DNA from: Ornithinimicrobium ciconiae
GTDB taxonomy: Bacteria; Actinomycetota; Actinomycetes; Actinomycetales; Dermatophilaceae
NCBI RefSeq assembly: GCF_007197575.1
Contig: NZ_CP041616.1
Span: forward strand, 2,232,001-2,296,000
DNA: 64,000 bases
Direction: 5' to 3'
Part shown: positions 49,904 through 56,557 of the stretch, piece after piece
Numbering within the stretch: the first letter of the stretch is position 1
Layout: the number at the start of each line of letters is the position of its first letter
Notes under the pieces: generated by a model
The model's input: the letters and a program-made list of their open reading frames with translations, nothing else
What the model was told of the DNA's origin: nothing
Database searches by the model: none
Translations under genes and position numbers: made by a program

Positions 49904-50000
49904 CGGCGCGTCCCACGGCTCGGCGCGTCCCACGGCTGGGCGCGTCCCACGGCTCGGCGCGTCCCACGTCTCGGTGCTCCCCACGGCTCGGCGCGTCACG
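49904..50000. repeat. 17-bp tandem repeat, 5.7 copies
   Basis: Units of CGGCGCGTCCCACGGCT start at 49904, 49921, 49938, 49955, 49972 and 49989 (partial). The array occupies the space between the convergent GNAT and YciO genes and touches the last codons of yciO. Copies are contiguous, so this is a minisatellite rather than a CRISPR array. Confidence 0.88.
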
Positions 50001-50616
50001 CGAAGGGGGACGAGTCTCCCGCTCCCTCGCGCACGACCTCGGGGTAGCCGTTGGAGAAGTCGATGACTGTGGTGGGCCCGTTGCCGGTCTCGTCGCCGTC
50101 AATCACCAGGTCGACCTGGTCGTCCAGCCGCTCCTTGATCTCCCAGCCCGTGGCGAGGGGCTCCTCGTCCCCAGGCAAGAGCAGTGTGCTGGAGAGCATC
50201 GGCTCGCCCAGCTCAGCCAGGATCGCTTGGGTGATCCGGTGCTCCGGGATGCGCACCCCGACGGTCTTCTTCTTGGGGTGCTGCAACTTGCGCGGGACAC
50301 CCGGGGTGGCCGGCAGGATGAAGGTGAACGGTCCGGGGGTTGCCGCCTTGACCGCACGGAAGACAGCGTTGTCCAGCTGGACAAACTGGCCCAGCTGGGC
50401 GAAGTCGGCACACACCAGGGTGAAGTGGTGCTTGTCGTCAAGCCTGCGGATGGCGATGATGCGCTCCTTGGCTGCCTGGTTGCCCAGCTGGGCCCCCAAC
50501 GCGAAACAGGCATCCGTGGGGTAGGCGATGAGTCCGCCCTCCCGGAGCGTGTCAACGACCCGGTTGACGAGGCGCGGCTGCGGATCCACGGGGTGAATAT
50601 CAAGAAAGGTGGCCAT
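49996..50616 (-). CDS. yciO: YciO-type Sua5/YrdC family protein
   Basis: The 206-residue protein is a YrdC-domain protein resembling E. coli YciO rather than TsaC. Shared stretches are GLIAYPTDACFALGAQL, ATPGPFTFILPATPGVPRKL, GEPMLSSTLLLPG and TTVIDFSNGYPEVVREG. TsaC/Sua5 makes threonylcarbamoyl-AMP for tRNA t6A; the role of YciO is less certain. A TACAGT box (50622-50627 on the minus strand) lies five bases before the ATG. It diverges from the hydrolase-CHAT operon. Confidence 0.92.
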   Translation of the reverse strand: MATFLDIHPVDPQPRLVNRVVDTLREGGLIAYPTDACFALGAQLGNQAAKERIIAIRRLDDKHHFTLVCADFAQLGQFVQLDNAVFRAVKAATPGPFTFILPATPGVPRKLQHPKKKTVGVRIPEHRITQAILAELGEPMLSSTLLLPGDEEPLATGWEIKERLDDQVDLVIDGDETGNGPTTVIDFSNGYPEVVREGAGDSSPFA

Positions 50617-50741: not shown

Positions 50742-50810
50742 GTGGAGGCGGGACCGTGTCTCGGGTCTTTCGTGGACGGTCACCGCTCACTGGTCTCACG
50801 CTGGGAGCTG

Positions 50811-52136
50811 ATGACGATGACAGCGGCAATTCGCGGACCGTGGAAGATCGTGCCGAGCAGCGGCGGTCAGACCGCCCCGTTCTACATGATCCGCTTCGAC
50901 AAGCGTGGGGTGTGCACCAGCCCGGCCAGCCTCGCACACCTGGTGACGGCATCGGCCGAGGCCACGGACGTCTTTCTGTTCAGCCACGGCTGGAACAACG
51001 ACTGGGCCGCCGCCACCCGACGCTACGAGCAGTTTCTTGAGCAGTTCACCCAGGTGCGCGAGCAGGAGTGGGACCCTCCCGCGCGGGAGTTCCGTCCCGT
51101 GCTGGTGGGCGTGCACTGGCCCAGCACCGTCCTGGTCGGCGGGGACGACCGGGGCCCGGATATCGCCGGGGAGGAGCCGGAGGCAGCCGAGGAGGCCGAG
51201 GTGGACCTCGGACTGCTCGGCGAGCACCTGGATGCCGACCAGGCAGCCCGCTTCTATGAGCTGGCTGACGAGGCGCAGCTCACCGGTGCAGACGCCCTGG
51301 AGCTCGCCTCGCTGCTGGCTCCCGCGCTCGCCGGTGCGGACGACGAGCTCGGTTCGGGTCCGGAGCACACTCCGGACGCGAAGGAGTTGGTGCGTCTGTG
51401 GGCCGCCATGCCCTCCGAGGACCCACAGGCCCCCACGAGTCGCGGCGGTTTTGTCGACGAGACACCCGAAACGAACGGGACCGACCCGCAGGCTGCCGGC
51501 TGGCTCGACACGCTCAATCCGCGCAACGCGATCCGCAGCGCAACCGTCCTGCTGATGAAGGACCGGGCCGGCCGGGTCGGGGGAGCCGGTGTGCGCACCA
51601 TGCTGCACGGCATACTCAAGGCCTCCCCAGACTCGCGCGTGCATCTCATCGGGCACAGCTATGGGGCCAAGGTGGTGCTGTCGGCTCTCGCCGCTGGAAG
51701 CGCGCCCACGCGCCCGGTGGAGTCTGTGCTCCTGCTGCAGCCGGCCACCTCGGCGAAGTGCTTTGCCGACCCGGACGGCACTGAGCCAGCCGGTGGCTAC
51801 CGGCCCGCCCTGGACCGCTGCGCACAACCCATCATGACCACGTTCAGCAGGCACGATGCCCCGCTGACCAAACTGTTCCACTTCGCCGCACGCCGGGCCT
51901 CCGACCGGCGTGAGGTGGTCATCGCCGGAGCGCCGTCGGAGTTTGCGGCGCTGGGCGGCGTCGGCCCTCAGGACACCTCGTCAGTCACCGTCGTCGACGC
52001 CCGCACCGCTCCGCAGCGGTATCAGCACACCACCGAACAGATCATCGCGATCCGGGCCGATGCCGTCATCAGCGGTCACGGCGACGTGCAGAACCCCGCC
52101 ACGGCGTGGGCACTGCTGTGCCAGGTCATGGAGTAG
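50811..52136 (+). CDS. Alpha/beta-hydrolase-like protein, first gene of the CHAT operon
   Basis: The 441-residue protein has an alpha/beta-hydrolase pattern: a strand and oxyanion-type loop VFLFSHGWNND near residue 60, the nucleophile elbow GHSYGAKVV with S283, and a candidate His in ISGHGDVQ (H423). Between them is an acidic, helical insertion (about residues 115-225). There is no signal peptide or membrane helix, so it is probably a cytosolic esterase, lipase or peptidase. The ATG at 50811 follows GGGAG. It heads four tightly linked genes, all of unknown function. Confidence 0.78.
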   Translation: MTMTAAIRGPWKIVPSSGGQTAPFYMIRFDKRGVCTSPASLAHLVTASAEATDVFLFSHGWNNDWAAATRRYEQFLEQFTQVREQEWDPPAREFRPVLVGVHWPSTVLVGGDDRGPDIAGEEPEAAEEAEVDLGLLGEHLDADQAARFYELADEAQLTGADALELASLLAPALAGADDELGSGPEHTPDAKELVRLWAAMPSEDPQAPTSRGGFVDETPETNGTDPQAAGWLDTLNPRNAIRSATVLLMKDRAGRVGGAGVRTMLHGILKASPDSRVHLIGHSYGAKVVLSALAAGSAPTRPVESVLLLQPATSAKCFADPDGTEPAGGYRPALDRCAQPIMTTFSRHDAPLTKLFHFAARRASDRREVVIAGAPSEFAALGGVGPQDTSSVTVVDARTAPQRYQHTTEQIIAIRADAVISGHGDVQNPATAWALLCQVME

Positions 52137-52140
52137 TCCG

Positions 52141-53490
52141 ATGGCGATGCTGGTGCGCACCGAGCACGATCTGCCGACCGTGCGGATCGCCTATCGAGAT
52201 GGCGGGCGGGTCACGGTGCGCGTCTGGCTCCAGCGTGGCGGCGACGAGCCGCACCTCGTCGCCGAGTGCCGTGGCAGTGAGCTGGGCCCCCTGGACTTCA
52301 AGGGTGGGGAACCCGCCACCGACGACCAGTTCAGTCTGCCCTCTGACGTGCTCCGAGCCCTCGCGACGCAGGTCCCCACGCTGGGTGACTCCGCAGCACT
52401 GCCGACTCGCGCACTGTGGTTGGAGCTGCCCAGCCCCCGGGGCTATCTGCACCTGGTGCCGTGGGAGCAGCTACTGGCACCCCTGGGTCGACCCCTGGTC
52501 CGCCTCCCCAACTACACGGTGCGACCACGCGCACAGAGCCAGACGCTGGAGGTGGCCCTGTGCGCGGGGTGGTCGGTCGTCTCCGGAGAGTTTGACGCCG
52601 CCGGATCCCTGGCCGCGCTCGCCCGGGTGTGGCGCAGCGTGTCGGGACGGCCCACCACCGTCCACGTGTTCAGCGACGGGTGGGTCTATGAGCGGCTCAG
52701 GTCACTGGTCGAGGGGGAGGAGCAGGTCATCGCCCACGACCCCGGCCAGTGGCAGGCGGGGGACCAGCACCCCTCGGCCACCGGCAACTCGTGGCTCGGC
52801 TGGATGGGCCGAGAGCTCAGGGGGAAGGCCCTGGATGTGGTGCACCTGGTCGGACACGGCTATCTGTCCGGCGGGCGGGGCGGCGTCGCCATGTCCATGA
52901 CCCCGTCCCGGCTGCAGAACCAGCCTGAGTCGGATGACTGGGCAGGGGACGCCACCCCGGTGGGGGAGTTTGTCGGAGCCCCCAAGTTGGCGCAGTTCGT
53001 TGCCGGCCAGGGAGCCTGGTCCTTCATCGCCTCTGGGGCACCGGACAACTACTCCGGCGCGGCCCTGCGTGAGGTGGCCGACGTGCTGGCGCTCAACAGT
53101 CCGGGCATCACGATCTCCCACGACCTCGGACTGGACCCGGACGCGGAGCAGTTGGCCCGGGTTCTCACTCTCGTCCTCACTGGTCAGGACACGGTCGAGA
53201 CCGCCCACCCGGCGATCGCTGCCTGGGCGCACCCGCGGTTCGTGGCCTATCCCGAAGAGAGCCTGATGACCAGCAGCGGACACTCCGTGATGGTCCAGCA
53301 GGCCACGCAGGACCTCCTGGCCGGGGCACACACCCCGGTCTCGGTGGCCGCCGCCACCCGCTACCTGGAGTCACTGCAGGCCAAGTGGGTCACGGCAGGC
53401 GATGCACCGGATCCTGATGCGGTCACTGCCCTGCGGACGGTGTCGGACCTGATCGAGACCCGCGCCACGGAACTGGGAGCGCCGCGATGA
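52141..53490 (+). CDS. CHAT-like protein lacking the catalytic Cys
   Basis: The 449-residue protein has the arrangement of a CHAT domain: an N-terminal part with LHLVPWEQLLAPLGRPLV, then VVHLVGHGYLSGG with the expected His (H239). Where active CHAT proteases have a Cys (LSAC-type strand end), this protein reads WSFIASGAPDNYSG. It is therefore probably a pseudoprotease, perhaps a regulatory partner of the next protein. It starts four bases after the hydrolase gene and overlaps the next by ATGA. Confidence 0.7.
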   Translation: MAMLVRTEHDLPTVRIAYRDGGRVTVRVWLQRGGDEPHLVAECRGSELGPLDFKGGEPATDDQFSLPSDVLRALATQVPTLGDSAALPTRALWLELPSPRGYLHLVPWEQLLAPLGRPLVRLPNYTVRPRAQSQTLEVALCAGWSVVSGEFDAAGSLAALARVWRSVSGRPTTVHVFSDGWVYERLRSLVEGEEQVIAHDPGQWQAGDQHPSATGNSWLGWMGRELRGKALDVVHLVGHGYLSGGRGGVAMSMTPSRLQNQPESDDWAGDATPVGEFVGAPKLAQFVAGQGAWSFIASGAPDNYSGAALREVADVLALNSPGITISHDLGLDPDAEQLARVLTLVLTGQDTVETAHPAIAAWAHPRFVAYPEESLMTSSGHSVMVQQATQDLLAGAHTPVSVAAATRYLESLQAKWVTAGDAPDPDAVTALRTVSDLIETRATELGAPR

Positions 53491-55103
53491 GCAGGGTCGT
53501 CTTCAGCATCGTGGAGATGCCCGGACCCGACGGGGTGTGCCTGGGGATCCAGCTCAAGGAACCCCCAGAGCTGCCGCGGCCACAGCCGGAGCCGTTGGGG
53601 CTGGCAGCCACCGACCCCGCCTTTCAGGCACTACGTGGCGTGCCTCCCGACGGTGCTGTCCGGGAGGCCGGACGGCTGCTGTTCGACGCCCTGACCCAAA
53701 ACTCCCCGGTGGCCAGGCAACTCTCGGCGGCGCTGCTGGTGCAGCCGCCTGAGCGCCGCCCGGTCTTTGTCGAGCTGGCCACCACCGACGGTGAGAACTT
53801 CCCGTGGGAGGCGTTGTGCAACGCCGAGGGACGCTTCCTCGGTCTCGACGAGCGCTGGGCCGTGGGGCGCATCGTCGAGACCGTCATCCCGGTGGACGGT
53901 TACTGGCACTTCGAGCCGCCCCTGCGACTGGCCGCGATCCTGTCCTGTCTGGGCGTGCCCGCCATCGATGAGTGGACCGCGCTGCGCGCCGCTGTCGAGG
54001 CCACCGCCCTGCCCCTTGAGCTGCTGGTCCTGGTGAGCGAGGACACGCTGCACGCGGAGATCTCGCAGTCCGCGCCGCCGTGGGTGCACGTGGAGTTTGT
54101 GCCTTCCACCGTGGCGGAGATGCAGGTGCGTCTCCAACAGTTCAACCCGCACGTCCTCCACATGTTTTGCCACGGCCTGTCGACGGAGACCAGCCCACAC
54201 CTGCAGGTGGCGACCCGGGCCGACTGGCTCACGGGGGAGAGCAGCAGCCTGATGGTGGAGGCCGGAGACATCGGAGGCTTCAACCCGCCGGTGGACGCAC
54301 TGCCCTGGCTGGTGGTGCTCAACAGTTGTGAGACCGCCTCTGCCACGGGGGTCGAGGCGGCTGGCTCCGTCGCACTGAACCTCATCTACACCGAGGGAAT
54401 CCCCGCCGTTGTGGGCATGCGCGAACCGGTCCGTTCCGATGACGCCACGCTGTTCACCAAGGCCTTCTACGACCAGCTGCTGCCTGAGTTCAACGCGCTG
54501 CTGAGCACCCCCGGAGTCCCGGAGCAGCTGGATTGGGCCCGGCTGCTGGTCAACGCACGTGAACAACTGGCTGACCAGTATGAACCGCTCGATGCCCAGC
54601 GGGGCACCAAGAAGGAATGGACCCTCCCGGTGGTCTACACCCGTCCCGCAACGTTCCGGGTCCAGGCGTCAGCGGCCCCGAGCGTGGGGACAGAGGTGGG
54701 TCCCGAACCTCAGGTGGCAGGTGCGGCTGAGTCCCCGCCTGCCCTGCCCGAGGACGTCGAGCCCGAGCACGTCGAGCCCGAGCACGTCGAGCCCGAGCAC
54801 GTCGAGCCCGAGCACGTCGAGCCTGAGCACGTCGAGTCCGAGCACGTCGAGTCCGAGCACGTCGAGTCCGAGCACGTCGAGCCCGCCGCCGCCGCGCAAC
54901 GGTCTGCGACGCCACCACCATCGCCACCGCCACCCGGAGGCACCCCGGCGCCGGTCACCGACCAGACCACGCGCTCCCTGGTGCTCACCGTCGAGGCACT
55001 CACCGGGTTGCGAACCACGGTCGAGGGCACCGGAGACACCACCCTGCTGGACTCCATCGACACCCACCTCATCCTCGTGCTGGACGAACTGGAGCAACGA
55101 TGA
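53487..55103 (+). CDS. CHAT-domain caspase-like protease with pentapeptide-repeat linker
   Basis: The 538-residue protein contains a CHAT domain (about residues 85-400), a relative of caspases and separase. The catalytic pair is intact: H229 in LHMFCHGLST and C281 in LVVLNSCETASA. The N-terminal part has ENFPWEALCNAEGRFLG, typical of CHAT. After the domain comes a linker with eight copies of VE(P/S)EH (about residues 424-463), a Pro-rich stretch, and a short conserved-looking helical C-terminus. It is coupled to both neighbours by four-base overlaps. Its substrate is unknown; a neighbour-encoded protein is a natural candidate. Confidence 0.85.
   Translation: MSRVVFSIVEMPGPDGVCLGIQLKEPPELPRPQPEPLGLAATDPAFQALRGVPPDGAVREAGRLLFDALTQNSPVARQLSAALLVQPPERRPVFVELATTDGENFPWEALCNAEGRFLGLDERWAVGRIVETVIPVDGYWHFEPPLRLAAILSCLGVPAIDEWTALRAAVEATALPLELLVLVSEDTLHAEISQSAPPWVHVEFVPSTVAEMQVRLQQFNPHVLHMFCHGLSTETSPHLQVATRADWLTGESSSLMVEAGDIGGFNPPVDALPWLVVLNSCETASATGVEAAGSVALNLIYTEGIPAVVGMREPVRSDDATLFTKAFYDQLLPEFNALLSTPGVPEQLDWARLLVNAREQLADQYEPLDAQRGTKKEWTLPVVYTRPATFRVQASAAPSVGTEVGPEPQVAGAAESPPALPEDVEPEHVEPEHVEPEHVEPEHVEPEHVESEHVESEHVESEHVEPAAAAQRSATPPPSPPPPGGTPAPVTDQTTRSLVLTVEALTGLRTTVEGTGDTTLLDSIDTHLILVLDELEQR
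54756..54875 (+). repeat. 15-bp coding tandem repeat, eight copies
   Basis: Eight contiguous 15-bp units encode VEPEH (five times) and then VESEH (three times) in the linker of the CHAT protease. The near-identity of copies points to recent expansion, and copy number should vary between strains. Confidence 0.92.
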
Positions 55104-56557
55104 CCGCCCCCGCGTCCCCGGACGAACCTCGCCAGGATCAGCCACCGCTGCGTGACCTCGAGGTGCAGGCCAACGCCTTCACCGGTGAGGAGGCCGCGAC
55201 CGGACACTTCGCTGACACCCTGGGCCGATGGACGGTCGGCGCTGCAGATCTTGGGGTGCCACACCTGGTTCCGAGTCCCGTCGACCCTGCGCACTGGCGT
55301 GATCCGCGTGTGGGGTGGGGCGTCATACTCCCGGAGCGCGAGGGACTGGATCCGGTCGCACTCGCCACCGCGGACGACGCCCCCGAGCCGATCCGTGAGC
55401 TGGTGGTGCAGCGGCAGGGCAAGGTCCTGCGCTATCGCCCCGGCACCGCGCTGGCCCAGTGGGCGCTGCGCGACTATGCCGGTGGGGGAGACCTGTTCAC
55501 GGCCGCCTCACCGCAGGGTATGGGCGCCCAGGAGCTGCCGTTGTATCTGCTGATCGCCGCGTCTCCCGCTGACGTCCCGTGGCAGGTCCAGTACGCGTTG
55601 AACCCCGTGCGTTATGTCGGTCGTCTTGACCTCGACGACGCAGGCCTGGCCAACTATGTCAGCGCGCTGATGGACGGGTGGCGGGACTCGACCGCTTCGT
55701 ATGCCGCACCCCTGGTCTGGTCGGTCGACCACGGTGGGGGAGATATCACCACCCTCATGCGGGAGGTCATCGGAGCCGGACTGCACGACACCTTCGCGGC
55801 GGACGCCGACATGCCCGGGCTGCGATACGTCGACGGGTCGGTCACCGACGCCACCGGGGCGGCGCTGACCGCGGCGCTCACCGAGCTGCGCCCCCTCGTG
55901 ATCGTGACGACGAGCCACGGCAAGACCGGGCCGCTCAGCGACCCGGACCAGATGCGCCGTGACCTCGGGATGCTGGTCGACGCCTCCCACCAGGTGGTCG
56001 ATCCAACTGCGCTCACCGCGACGTGGTCGCCCGACGGCGCCGTCTGGTTTGCCCAGGCCTGCTGCTCGGCCGGAGCGGACCAACCCTCGGCCTACGAGGG
56101 GCTGTTTGCCGAGTCCGGCACCGTGGGTCGGGTCCTCACCGAGGTGGCCCGCCTCGGCGCACAGACGGCACCGACCCCGCGTGCACTGCTCGGCGCCGCC
56201 AAGCCGCTGCGGGCCTTCATCGGGCAGGTCGAGCCGACCTTCAACTGGACGATGTCCTTCCCACCCAACCAGGCGGACCTCACCGCCAGCCTGCGCCGGA
56301 CCGTCTACGAAGGCATCTGCGGTGGCAAGCCGGTCGGGATGGCGCTGGCGGCCTACTACGACGTGATCGGGTCGCTGCTGGTCAACCATGGTCGTGCCCT
56401 GAAGTCGTTCAACGTCGGCTCGACCACCGCACTGGACCTGGCGGCCTACAGCAAGGCCACGGCATACGACCGGGCCAGCACCGTTCTCCTGGGCGACCCG
56501 ACGGTGGCGATCCCCCTGCCCGGAGCAGCGCCGCCCGGACAACCGTTGCCTGCGTGA
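55100..56557 (+). CDS. Caspase-like (clan CD) protein, last gene of the CHAT operon
   Basis: I do not recognise a named family for this 485-residue protein, but it has the core pattern of clan CD proteases: a hydrophobic strand ending in His, PLVIVTTSHGKTG (H273), and 48 residues later a strand ending in Cys, AVWFAQACCSAG (C321, C322). Upstream lies a domain of about 200 residues with QELPLYLLIAASPADVPWQV. The C-terminus contains AAYYDVIGSLLVNHG. Overlap with the CHAT gene (ATGA) indicates one functional unit. Catalysis is inferred from motif spacing alone. Confidence 0.65.
   Translation: MTAPASPDEPRQDQPPLRDLEVQANAFTGEEAATGHFADTLGRWTVGAADLGVPHLVPSPVDPAHWRDPRVGWGVILPEREGLDPVALATADDAPEPIRELVVQRQGKVLRYRPGTALAQWALRDYAGGGDLFTAASPQGMGAQELPLYLLIAASPADVPWQVQYALNPVRYVGRLDLDDAGLANYVSALMDGWRDSTASYAAPLVWSVDHGGGDITTLMREVIGAGLHDTFAADADMPGLRYVDGSVTDATGAALTAALTELRPLVIVTTSHGKTGPLSDPDQMRRDLGMLVDASHQVVDPTALTATWSPDGAVWFAQACCSAGADQPSAYEGLFAESGTVGRVLTEVARLGAQTAPTPRALLGAAKPLRAFIGQVEPTFNWTMSFPPNQADLTASLRRTVYEGICGGKPVGMALAAYYDVIGSLLVNHGRALKSFNVGSTTALDLAAYSKATAYDRASTVLLGDPTVAIPLPGAAPPGQPLPA

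What the first reader, a model, noticed from the sequence alone, without database searches (positions are those of the whole stretch)
50811..56557. Four-gene hydrolase / pseudo-CHAT / CHAT / caspase-like operon, possibly an undescribed protease-based system
Seen: four co-directional genes with a gap of four bases and two ATGA overlaps encode an alpha/beta-hydrolase (GHSYG, S283), a CHAT-like protein with His but no Cys, a CHAT protease with H229/C281, and a clan CD-like protein with H273/C321-C322. Known: CHAT and caspase-like proteases act in bacterial cell-death and antiphage systems (for example Craspase partners and gasdermin-activating proteases), often with a second effector. Inference: the CHAT protein may activate the hydrolase or the terminal caspase-like protein by cleavage, in a defence or stress-induced death pathway. 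I know of no named system with this four-gene content.
Basis: partly seen in the sequence, partly recalled or inferred. Interest (0 to 1): 0.85.

Follow-up and report, generated by a model that had tools for sequence, protein, structure and literature searches.

The report
Protease trio paired with a hydrolase
Four neighbouring bacterial genes, found together in the same order in distant bacteria, encode a lipase-like enzyme, two relatives of cell-death proteases and a dead copy of one of them; they look like a small proteolytic switch that turns the enzyme on, but no experiment has yet shown what it does.

Summary
In detail: four co-directional genes (gap 4 bases, two ATGA overlaps) encode an alpha/beta hydrolase, a pseudo-CHAT protein, a CHAT protease and a clan CD-type peptidase, C25-like rather than C14 caspase. 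The same order occurs in all 17 other loci opened with a full-type gene 4 (one cut by contig ends), in Actinomycetota and Alphaproteobacteria, some on plasmids. Catalytic residues of genes 1, 3 and 4 are invariant in the alignments; gene 2 has no Cys at the catalytic column (0 of 39) and lost His239 in 12 of 39. Elsewhere the hydrolase family stands beside other proteases (S8 subtilases, C25, CHAT with STAND NTPases). Genes 2 and 3 changed partners together relative to genes 1 and 4 and the flanking genes. Best reading: a protease-controlled hydrolase with the pseudo-CHAT/CHAT pair as variable trigger. A link to phage defence is not shown: flanks carry no more known defence families than a control (1 of 96 each). 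Hydrolase-caspase pairing in conflict systems is published (PMC7159879); this NTPase-free four-gene form I did not find in print. No structure was predicted (tool off).

The parts
50811..52136 (+). gene 1: alpha/beta hydrolase (441 aa), triad S283-D349-H423
   Evidence: Pfam DUF900 5.4e-6 and Abhydrolase_8 2.4e-4, both over cut-off; S283, D349, H423 in 16 of 16 aligned; ATG 50811 fits homologue starts better than the GTG at 50742
52141..53490 (+). gene 2: pseudo-CHAT (449 aa), no catalytic Cys
   Evidence: hhalign with the gene 3 family 96.8% over 213 columns; no Cys in the columns of residues 298-300 in 39 of 39, His239 in 27 of 39
53487..55103 (+). gene 3: CHAT protease (538 aa), H229/C281, with C-terminal linker and tail
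   Evidence: Pfam CHAT 7.7e-14; PADLOC SAVED_CHAT 6.8e-8; family profile hits PDB 8tl0 'CHAT domain-containing protein' 3.4e-6; H229, C281 in 16 of 16
54746..54885 (+). 15-base tandem array (9.3 copies) in the linker of gene 3, in frame (EHVEP/EHVES units)
   Evidence: linker length differs between homologues
55100..56557 (+). gene 4: C25-like clan CD-type peptidase (485 aa), H273/C321
   Evidence: no Pfam match itself; C25 by intermediates L037, L089, L092; H273, C321 in 55 of 55

Best explanation
A cytoplasmic, protease-controlled hydrolase system. Shown by sequence: an alpha/beta hydrolase with intact triad, an intact CHAT protease, an intact C25-like peptidase and a CHAT relative without the catalytic Cys form one inherited cassette. 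Inferred: the dead CHAT (gene 2) and the active CHAT (gene 3) form the input unit that senses a trigger; on activation gene 3 cleaves and switches on the C25-like peptidase (gene 4) and/or the hydrolase (gene 1); the hydrolase, or the hydrolase and gene 4 together, then act on cell components (lipids or other esters being the likeliest substrate) and stop growth or kill the cell. The setting is most likely a conflict or stress-death response; phage defence is one possibility. My confidence is about 0.95 for the anatomy, about 0.75 for functional coupling of hydrolase and proteases, about 0.4 for a conflict or defence role.
For: Order gene 1-2-3-4 on one strand in 17 of 17 other loci with a full-type gene 4 (15, one of them cut by contig ends; 2). 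Catalytic residues invariant in genes 1, 3, 4; no catalytic Cys in gene 2 in 39 of 39. The hydrolase family is next to a protease gene in 11 of 11 plasmid loci opened outside the four-gene type (11 of 18 such records opened): 8 S8 (one only a fragment), 2 C25, 1 CHAT-nSTAND1; four of the S8 ones are near copies. In genomes, 7 of the 11 full-length hydrolase hits outside the four-gene type are directly preceded by an S8 gene, gap 1-44 bases, where the 13 genomes checked hold 4-19 S8 matches each. Contexts with nSTAND1 and SIR2_2 (L037), nSTAND1-WD40 (L092) and NB-ARC/TPR (L086) point to conflict systems. Genes 2 and 3 both place the window with L006 (support 100/99 in each), while genes 1 and 4 and four of four flanking genes reject this (AU p 0.020, 0.0065, 1.7e-6, 0.0008, 0.0024, 0.010), so 2 and 3 moved as a unit; they are also the most divergent (mean identity 36.0 and 37.5% against 48.9 and 50.8%). 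Precedent: caspase/hydrolase pairs (PMC7159879), protease-activated pro-nucleases including caspase-nuclease canu loci (PMC12799240; passages).
Against: No experiment and no structure. No cleavage site or zymogen feature was identified; the roughly 90-130-residue insertion of the hydrolase that might gate it is also in the Streptomyces copies without a protease beside them. Hydrolases without an S8, CHAT or C25-like match on the stretch fetched exist (L076, L078, L079, L082, L083, L084). Flanks carry no excess of defence families (1 of 96 against 1 of 96), no phage carrier was found, nor a viral contig by a pattern scan for close relatives, and the site is fixed in the window's clade. In 7 of the 39 gene 2 sequences a Cys stands five residues after the aligned place, so a displaced active site in those cannot be excluded without a structure. 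The clade (window, L006) was chosen after identities were seen, and with 15 loci gene 1 rejects it only at p 0.072.
Confidence: 0.5

Rival explanations
1. Antiphage abortive-infection system: infection triggers the CHAT pair, and the hydrolase or C25-like peptidase kills the cell.
For: Patchy presence (own genome counted): 7 of 31 genomes of the genus, 2 of 396 of the phylum; plasmid carriers; an independent divergent copy in G812 on another contig (L116); related loci with STAND NTPases or SIR2_2; a WYL-domain gene and helicase/nuclease genes near the Sinorhizobium hydrolase-C25 pair; a DUF499 gene near the Bradyrhizobium copy (its link to defence is recalled).
Against: No PADLOC match for genes 1, 2, 4; flanks 1 of 96 against 1 of 96 (ORFs over 900 aa and ORFs cut by the locus end, so also that DUF499 gene, were dropped); stable syntenic site in the Ornithinimicrobium clade; no phage record.
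Confidence: 0.25
2. Housekeeping or developmental regulated proteolysis (envelope or lipid homeostasis, programmed lysis) without conflict role; the hydrolase is the regulated enzyme.
For: One chromosomal place in six genomes of the window's clade; no clear membrane-spanning or secreted part; hydrolases without protease neighbours in Streptomyces-type genomes.
Against: 24 of 31 genomes of the genus gave no gene 4 match; G809 has YrdC and the multicopper oxidase next to each other without the operon (L114); the unit also lies on plasmids.
Confidence: 0.2
3. The gene neighbours are co-inherited but the proteases mainly degrade foreign or stress-damaged protein; the hydrolase is an independent second effector, not a substrate.
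For: Neither a cleavage site nor a conserved linker was found in the hydrolase.
Against: Repeated pairing of the hydrolase with unrelated protease families, S8 above all, suggests that it is the proteases' partner.
Confidence: 0.2

Closest known systems
Alpha/beta-hydrolase plus caspase pairs of VMAP MoxR-vWA ternary conflict systems (PMC7159879; passages seen)
   Same: A caspase-superfamily peptidase with a neighbouring alpha/beta-hydrolase gene, suggested there to operate together
   Different: No MoxR, vWA or other NTPase in the four genes or the ten flanking ORFs scanned; peptidase is C25-like; has CHAT and pseudo-CHAT genes. The words CHAT and C25 do not occur in that paper's main text
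canu caspase-nuclease loci and nuclease-protease pairs of Hachiman/AVAST (PMC12799240; abstract and passages seen)
   Same: Paired protease and effector enzyme, the effector recurring with different protease families
   Different: Effector here is an alpha/beta hydrolase, not an MBL-type nuclease; activation by cleavage not shown here
Type III CRISPR SAVED-CHAT and TPR-CHAT (Craspase)
   Same: Gene 3 matches the PADLOC SAVED_CHAT model and, as a family profile, the CHAT chain of PDB 8tl0, named SAVED-CHAT in PMC11417357 (passages). That a CHAT protease can act on a second, caspase-like protease there is recalled, not read
   Different: No SAVED or TPR match in gene 3; no Cas gene among the four genes
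Hydrolase / C25 / CHAT-nSTAND1-WD40 locus of a Nostoc plasmid (L092) and CHAT-SIR2 / nSTAND1 / C25 / hydrolase locus (L037)
   Same: Homologous hydrolase and C25-like peptidase with a CHAT protein
   Different: They have STAND NTPase, WD40 or SIR2 domains, and the gene 2 profile found no gene 2 on them; I know of no name for them

Membership tests
CHAT proteases (gene 3) | Pfam CHAT match over cut-off | tested here: met
   52.3 bits, cut-off 24
CHAT proteases (gene 3) | His-Cys dyad | tested here: met
   H229 and C281 in 16 of 16
CHAT proteases (gene 2) | Homology to CHAT | tested here: met
   hhalign 96.8% with the gene 3 family; one member, P0129, bears Pfam CHAT; no Pfam match for the window's own protein
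CHAT proteases (gene 2) | Catalytic His and Cys | tested here: not met
   Cys at the aligned place in 0 of 39, His239 in 27 of 39
Peptidase family C25 (gene 4) | Pfam C25 match | tested here: inconclusive
   None for the window protein; 2 of 55 members match at E up to 1; intermediates match over cut-off and align with gene 4
Peptidase family C25 (gene 4) | His and Cys in register with C25 relatives | tested here: met
   H273 and C321 in 10 of 10 of the joint alignment
Caspases C14 (gene 4) | Pfam Peptidase_C14 match | tested here: not met
   No match for the window protein at E up to 1; not among the 13 families matched by any of 55 members
Alpha/beta hydrolases (gene 1) | GxSxG nucleophile and Ser-Asp-His triad | tested here: met
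   Pfam over cut-off, 16 of 16 for all three residues; the role of D349 and H423 is inferred from conservation and order
MoxR-vWA ternary conflict systems | MoxR ATPase and vWA protein next to the peptidase | tested here: not met
   None in the four genes or the ten flanking ORFs scanned
canu / nuclease-protease pairs | Partner is an MBL-type nuclease | tested here: not met
   No nuclease match in genes 1-4
Antiphage defence system | Protection against phage | not testable with these tools
   Needs a phage challenge
Antiphage defence system | Neighbours enriched in known defence genes | tested here: not met
   1 of 96 flanking ORFs of ten loci against 1 of 96 control ORFs at E 1e-10; rough ORF calls, ORFs over 900 aa and cut ORFs dropped
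Clan CD fold (genes 2 and 4) | Caspase-type fold in a structure model | not testable with these tools
   Structure prediction switched off

The most novel reading that the evidence does not exclude
Bacteria have a general class of protease-activated hydrolases, parallel to the pro-nuclease/protease pairs: one alpha/beta-hydrolase family has been joined to S8, CHAT and C25-type proteases. The window's form is an NTPase-free proteolytic cascade, CHAT to C25-like peptidase to hydrolase, whose trigger is a swappable pseudo-CHAT/CHAT pair, working like the inactive caspase homologue that controls an initiator caspase in animals (that parallel is recalled).
Probability: 0.3. Interest if true: 0.82.

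Novelty: new variant of a known kind. Interest (0 to 1): 0.62.

Why it matters
If true, it gives a four-gene, NTPase-free system in which an initiator protease, its dead paralogue, a second clan CD-type protease and a hydrolase effector can be studied together, and a testable general rule: this hydrolase family is the output of proteases of several unrelated kinds. It would extend protease-activated effectors from nucleases and (recalled) gasdermins to lipase-like enzymes, and would supply a bacterial pseudoprotease/protease pair that diversifies and is exchanged as a unit.

Tried and rejected
Gene 4 as a caspase (C14): no match; C25-like by intermediates. Gene 4 as a CHAT relative by hhalign: 1.1% and 0.6% with the gene 3 and gene 2 families. 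C322 as the nucleophile: rejected. Relatives in the PDB: none credible for genes 1, 2 and 4; gene 3 alone none, its family profile 8tl0. Defence island: not supported; the control is imperfect, since two of its eight loci (L033, L036) came from gene 4 searches. Phage or viral carriage: none found. Literature: searches listed no paper that I could recognise as describing this four-gene set; I saw listings and passages, not whole texts, and most subscription papers and preprints are not in that library. Recombination by synonymous sites: fourfold sites are nearly saturated inside the operon (44-57% identity in genes 1-4), so they carry no signal. A shared LodA/peroxidase neighbourhood was looked at and left as weak. 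Gene calling in flanks was a home-made GC3 rule and made errors, for example in L071 and L075, corrected by hand.
Full report
What is in the window. The genome is one 4.09-Mb contig; its genus group of 31 genomes holds the Ornithinimicrobium cavernae locus L002 (G806 has the same YrdC coordinates). Gene 1 passes the Pfam cut-offs of DUF900 and Abhydrolase_8, gene 3 that of CHAT; genes 2 and 4 match nothing in Pfam, PADLOC or NCBIfam at E up to 1. None has a clear membrane-spanning stretch: the highest 19-residue hydropathies are 1.19, 0.99, 1.61 and 1.32, the 1.61 of gene 3 lying near the usual (recalled) threshold.

A conserved unit. A protein search with gene 4 gave 842 relatives among the 7,996 candidates scored. 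Loci came from a genome-contig scan (5 loci), plasmids (5 records, 4 opened) and genome samples, the own genome counted: 2 of 396 genomes of the phylum (3 of 396 with a profile that includes a distant variant), 2 of 119 of the family, 7 of 200 in the family of the Kitasatospora carrier, two of these weak, and 7 of 31 of the genus. With profiles of all four genes, order 1-2-3-4 on one strand was found in 15 loci besides the window (L002-L006, L009-L012, L029-L032, L034, L035; L030 is cut by contig ends in genes 1 and 4) and in two more (L115, L116): 17 of 17. Not in this count: L033 (pieces of gene 4 only), L036 (weak hit, no family member found), L037 and L085 (distant variants, below), and the second Bradyrhizobium plasmid, not opened. 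The seven genus hits are the window, L115, L116 and, by coordinates, L002, L003, L004 and L006. The unit occurs in Actinomycetota, two of them Embleya records of 3.1 and 5.7 Mb that are filed as plasmids, and on plasmids of the Alphaproteobacteria Bradyrhizobium and Gemmobacter.

Catalytic residues. Gene 1: S283, D349, H423 in 16 of 16. Gene 3: H229 and C281 in 16 of 16. Gene 4: H273 and C321 in 55 of 55, C322 in 54 of 55. Gene 2: no Cys in the columns of residues 298-300 in any of 39 (residue 300 faces C281); His239 in 27 of 39. In 12 of 39 a Cys lies elsewhere within residues 290-308, in seven of them in the column of residue 305, three of which lack the His. So gene 2 looks like a conserved pseudo-protease; L115 and L116 were not part of these alignments. 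Its kinship to gene 3 rests on hhalign (96.8%, E 2.5e-10, 213 columns, PWE and HG motifs in register).

What gene 4 is. No direct match. A variant locus (L037, genome G711) has a gene 4 relative that passes the Pfam C25 cut-off, as do relatives from Sinorhizobium (L089) and Nostoc (L092, 7.9e-10). The gene 4 profile finds them at 1e-100 (L037, which was in the set searched when that profile was built, so this value is not independent), 1.5e-51 and 5e-67, with H273 and C321 in register in 10 of 10. Gene 4 is therefore C25-like. Clan CD as the roof over CHAT, C14 and C25 is recalled.

Partners of the hydrolase elsewhere. A profile of gene 1 hit 25 of 396 genomes of the phylum. Of 13 full-length places two are the four-gene type; of the other 11, seven (L071, L072, L073, L074, L075, L077, L080) have an S8 subtilase directly upstream, gap 1-44 bases, and four have not (L076, L078, L079; L081, where an S8 of the same kind lies about 6.3 kb away). 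Among partial hits opened, L086 has CHAT plus an NB-ARC/TPR protein; on L082, L083 and L084 no S8, CHAT or C25-like match was found. Eight genomes with short weak hits only, G013 and a second weak place of G153 were not opened as regions. L077 also has a C14 caspase and a UDG-domain gene. On plasmids 23 records matched gene 1, five of them the four-gene type; of the other 18 I opened 11, and all 11 have a protease gene beside the hydrolase: S8 in L090, L094, L095, L119, L120, L121, L122 and, as a fragment, in L091; C25 in L089 and L092; CHAT-nSTAND1 in L093. L095, L119, L120 and L121 are near copies at one place beside thiM, so they are not independent. Ten paired S8 proteins compared are 42-69% identical to each other, while the 13 genomes checked hold 4-19 S8 matches each.

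Variants with sensors. L037: CHAT-SIR2_2, nSTAND1, C25-like, hydrolase. L092: hydrolase, C25, CHAT-nSTAND1-WD40. L093: hydrolase, CHAT-nSTAND1. L085: C25-like, an LCAT-type hydrolase and a CHAT end piece at a contig end. In L037, L092 and L093 the CHAT protein carries or neighbours a STAND NTPase; the window's form has none and has gene 2 instead. That gene 2 took the sensor's place is inference.

Genes 2 and 3 as a module. In the window's clade the operon sits between YrdC and a multicopper oxidase in six genomes (window, L002, L003, L004, L006, L115); G809 has these two genes end to end, their coding ends about ten bases apart, with no operon (L114), and G812 has a divergent copy (gene 1 38%, gene 4 40% identity) on another contig (L116). 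Genes 2 and 3 join the window with L006 (79 and 74% identity, others 55-64%), gene 1 shows no preference, and gene 4 is closest to L002. Trees: support 100/99 for (window, L006) in genes 2 and 3; with 15 loci gene 4 rejects it (AU p 0.0015) and gene 1 only tends to (p 0.072); with eight loci p 0.0065 and 0.020, and four of four flanking genes reject it (p 1.7e-6, 0.0008, 0.0024, 0.010), as does their concatenation (p 0.0002). The clade was picked after looking, so these p values are not those of a blind test, and flanking gene trees also differ among themselves. Still, genes 2 and 3 agree with each other against the rest, which fits a physical pair. Over 15 loci they are also the most divergent (36.0 and 37.5% mean identity against 48.9 and 50.8%).

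Against a defence reading. 96 flanking ORFs of ten loci outside the window's clade gave one PADLOC match at E 1e-10 (CARF_2OG), and 96 control ORFs of eight loci also one (mads_1). ORFs over 900 aa and ORFs cut by a locus end were dropped, among them a DUF499 gene near the Bradyrhizobium copy that may be a defence gene (recalled); two control loci (L033, L036) came from gene 4 searches. No phage record carries gene 4; a pattern scan of viral contigs, which sees close relatives only, found none.

Literature. [quoted passage not shown] 'CHAT' and 'C25' do not occur in its main text. PMC8195603 (passages) lists alpha/beta-hydrolases, for hydrolysis of membrane lipids, among effector domains of such systems. 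PMC12799240 (abstract and passages) shows protease-activated pro-nucleases and caspase-nuclease loci. PMC11417357 (passages) names 8tl0 as SAVED-CHAT. PMC12669027 (two passages) added nothing. A CHAT-to-caspase cascade in type III CRISPR is recalled; I did not find that paper.

Conclusion. The four genes are a real and mobile unit whose parts point to proteolytic control of a hydrolase. The order of cleavage, the trigger and the biological role are open.

Noticed in passing
window 49996-50616: The YrdC/Sua5 gene next to the operon is on the - strand, whereas in L002, L003, L004, L006, L114 and L115 it lies on the same strand as GNAT (and the operon where present): a small local inversion in the window's lineage.
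   Followed up: partly
window 54746-54885: 9.3 copies of a 15-base unit in frame inside gene 3, coding an EHVEP/EHVES repeat in a linker that varies strongly between relatives.
   Followed up: partly
L077 5519-12101: S8 subtilase, hydrolase, a 138-aa gene, C14 caspase and a UDG-domain protein in a row: another protease/hydrolase assembly.
   Followed up: no
L033 9674-10870: Second, broken gene 4 copy in genome G545, without genes 1-3 on the 20-kb stretch.
   Followed up: no
L009/L088 and L074: A Bradyrhizobium plasmid carrying the four genes has a LodA/GoxA oxidase, FAD monooxygenase and halogenase nearby; the S8-hydrolase locus L074 holds a 35% identical relative of one gene of that stretch.
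   Followed up: partly
L085 537-4463: C25-like gene facing an LCAT-type hydrolase and a CHAT end piece: the same triad with a different hydrolase family.
   Followed up: no
L114 7118-7128: Empty site: in G809 YrdC and the multicopper oxidase end about ten bases apart with no operon between them.
   Followed up: yes
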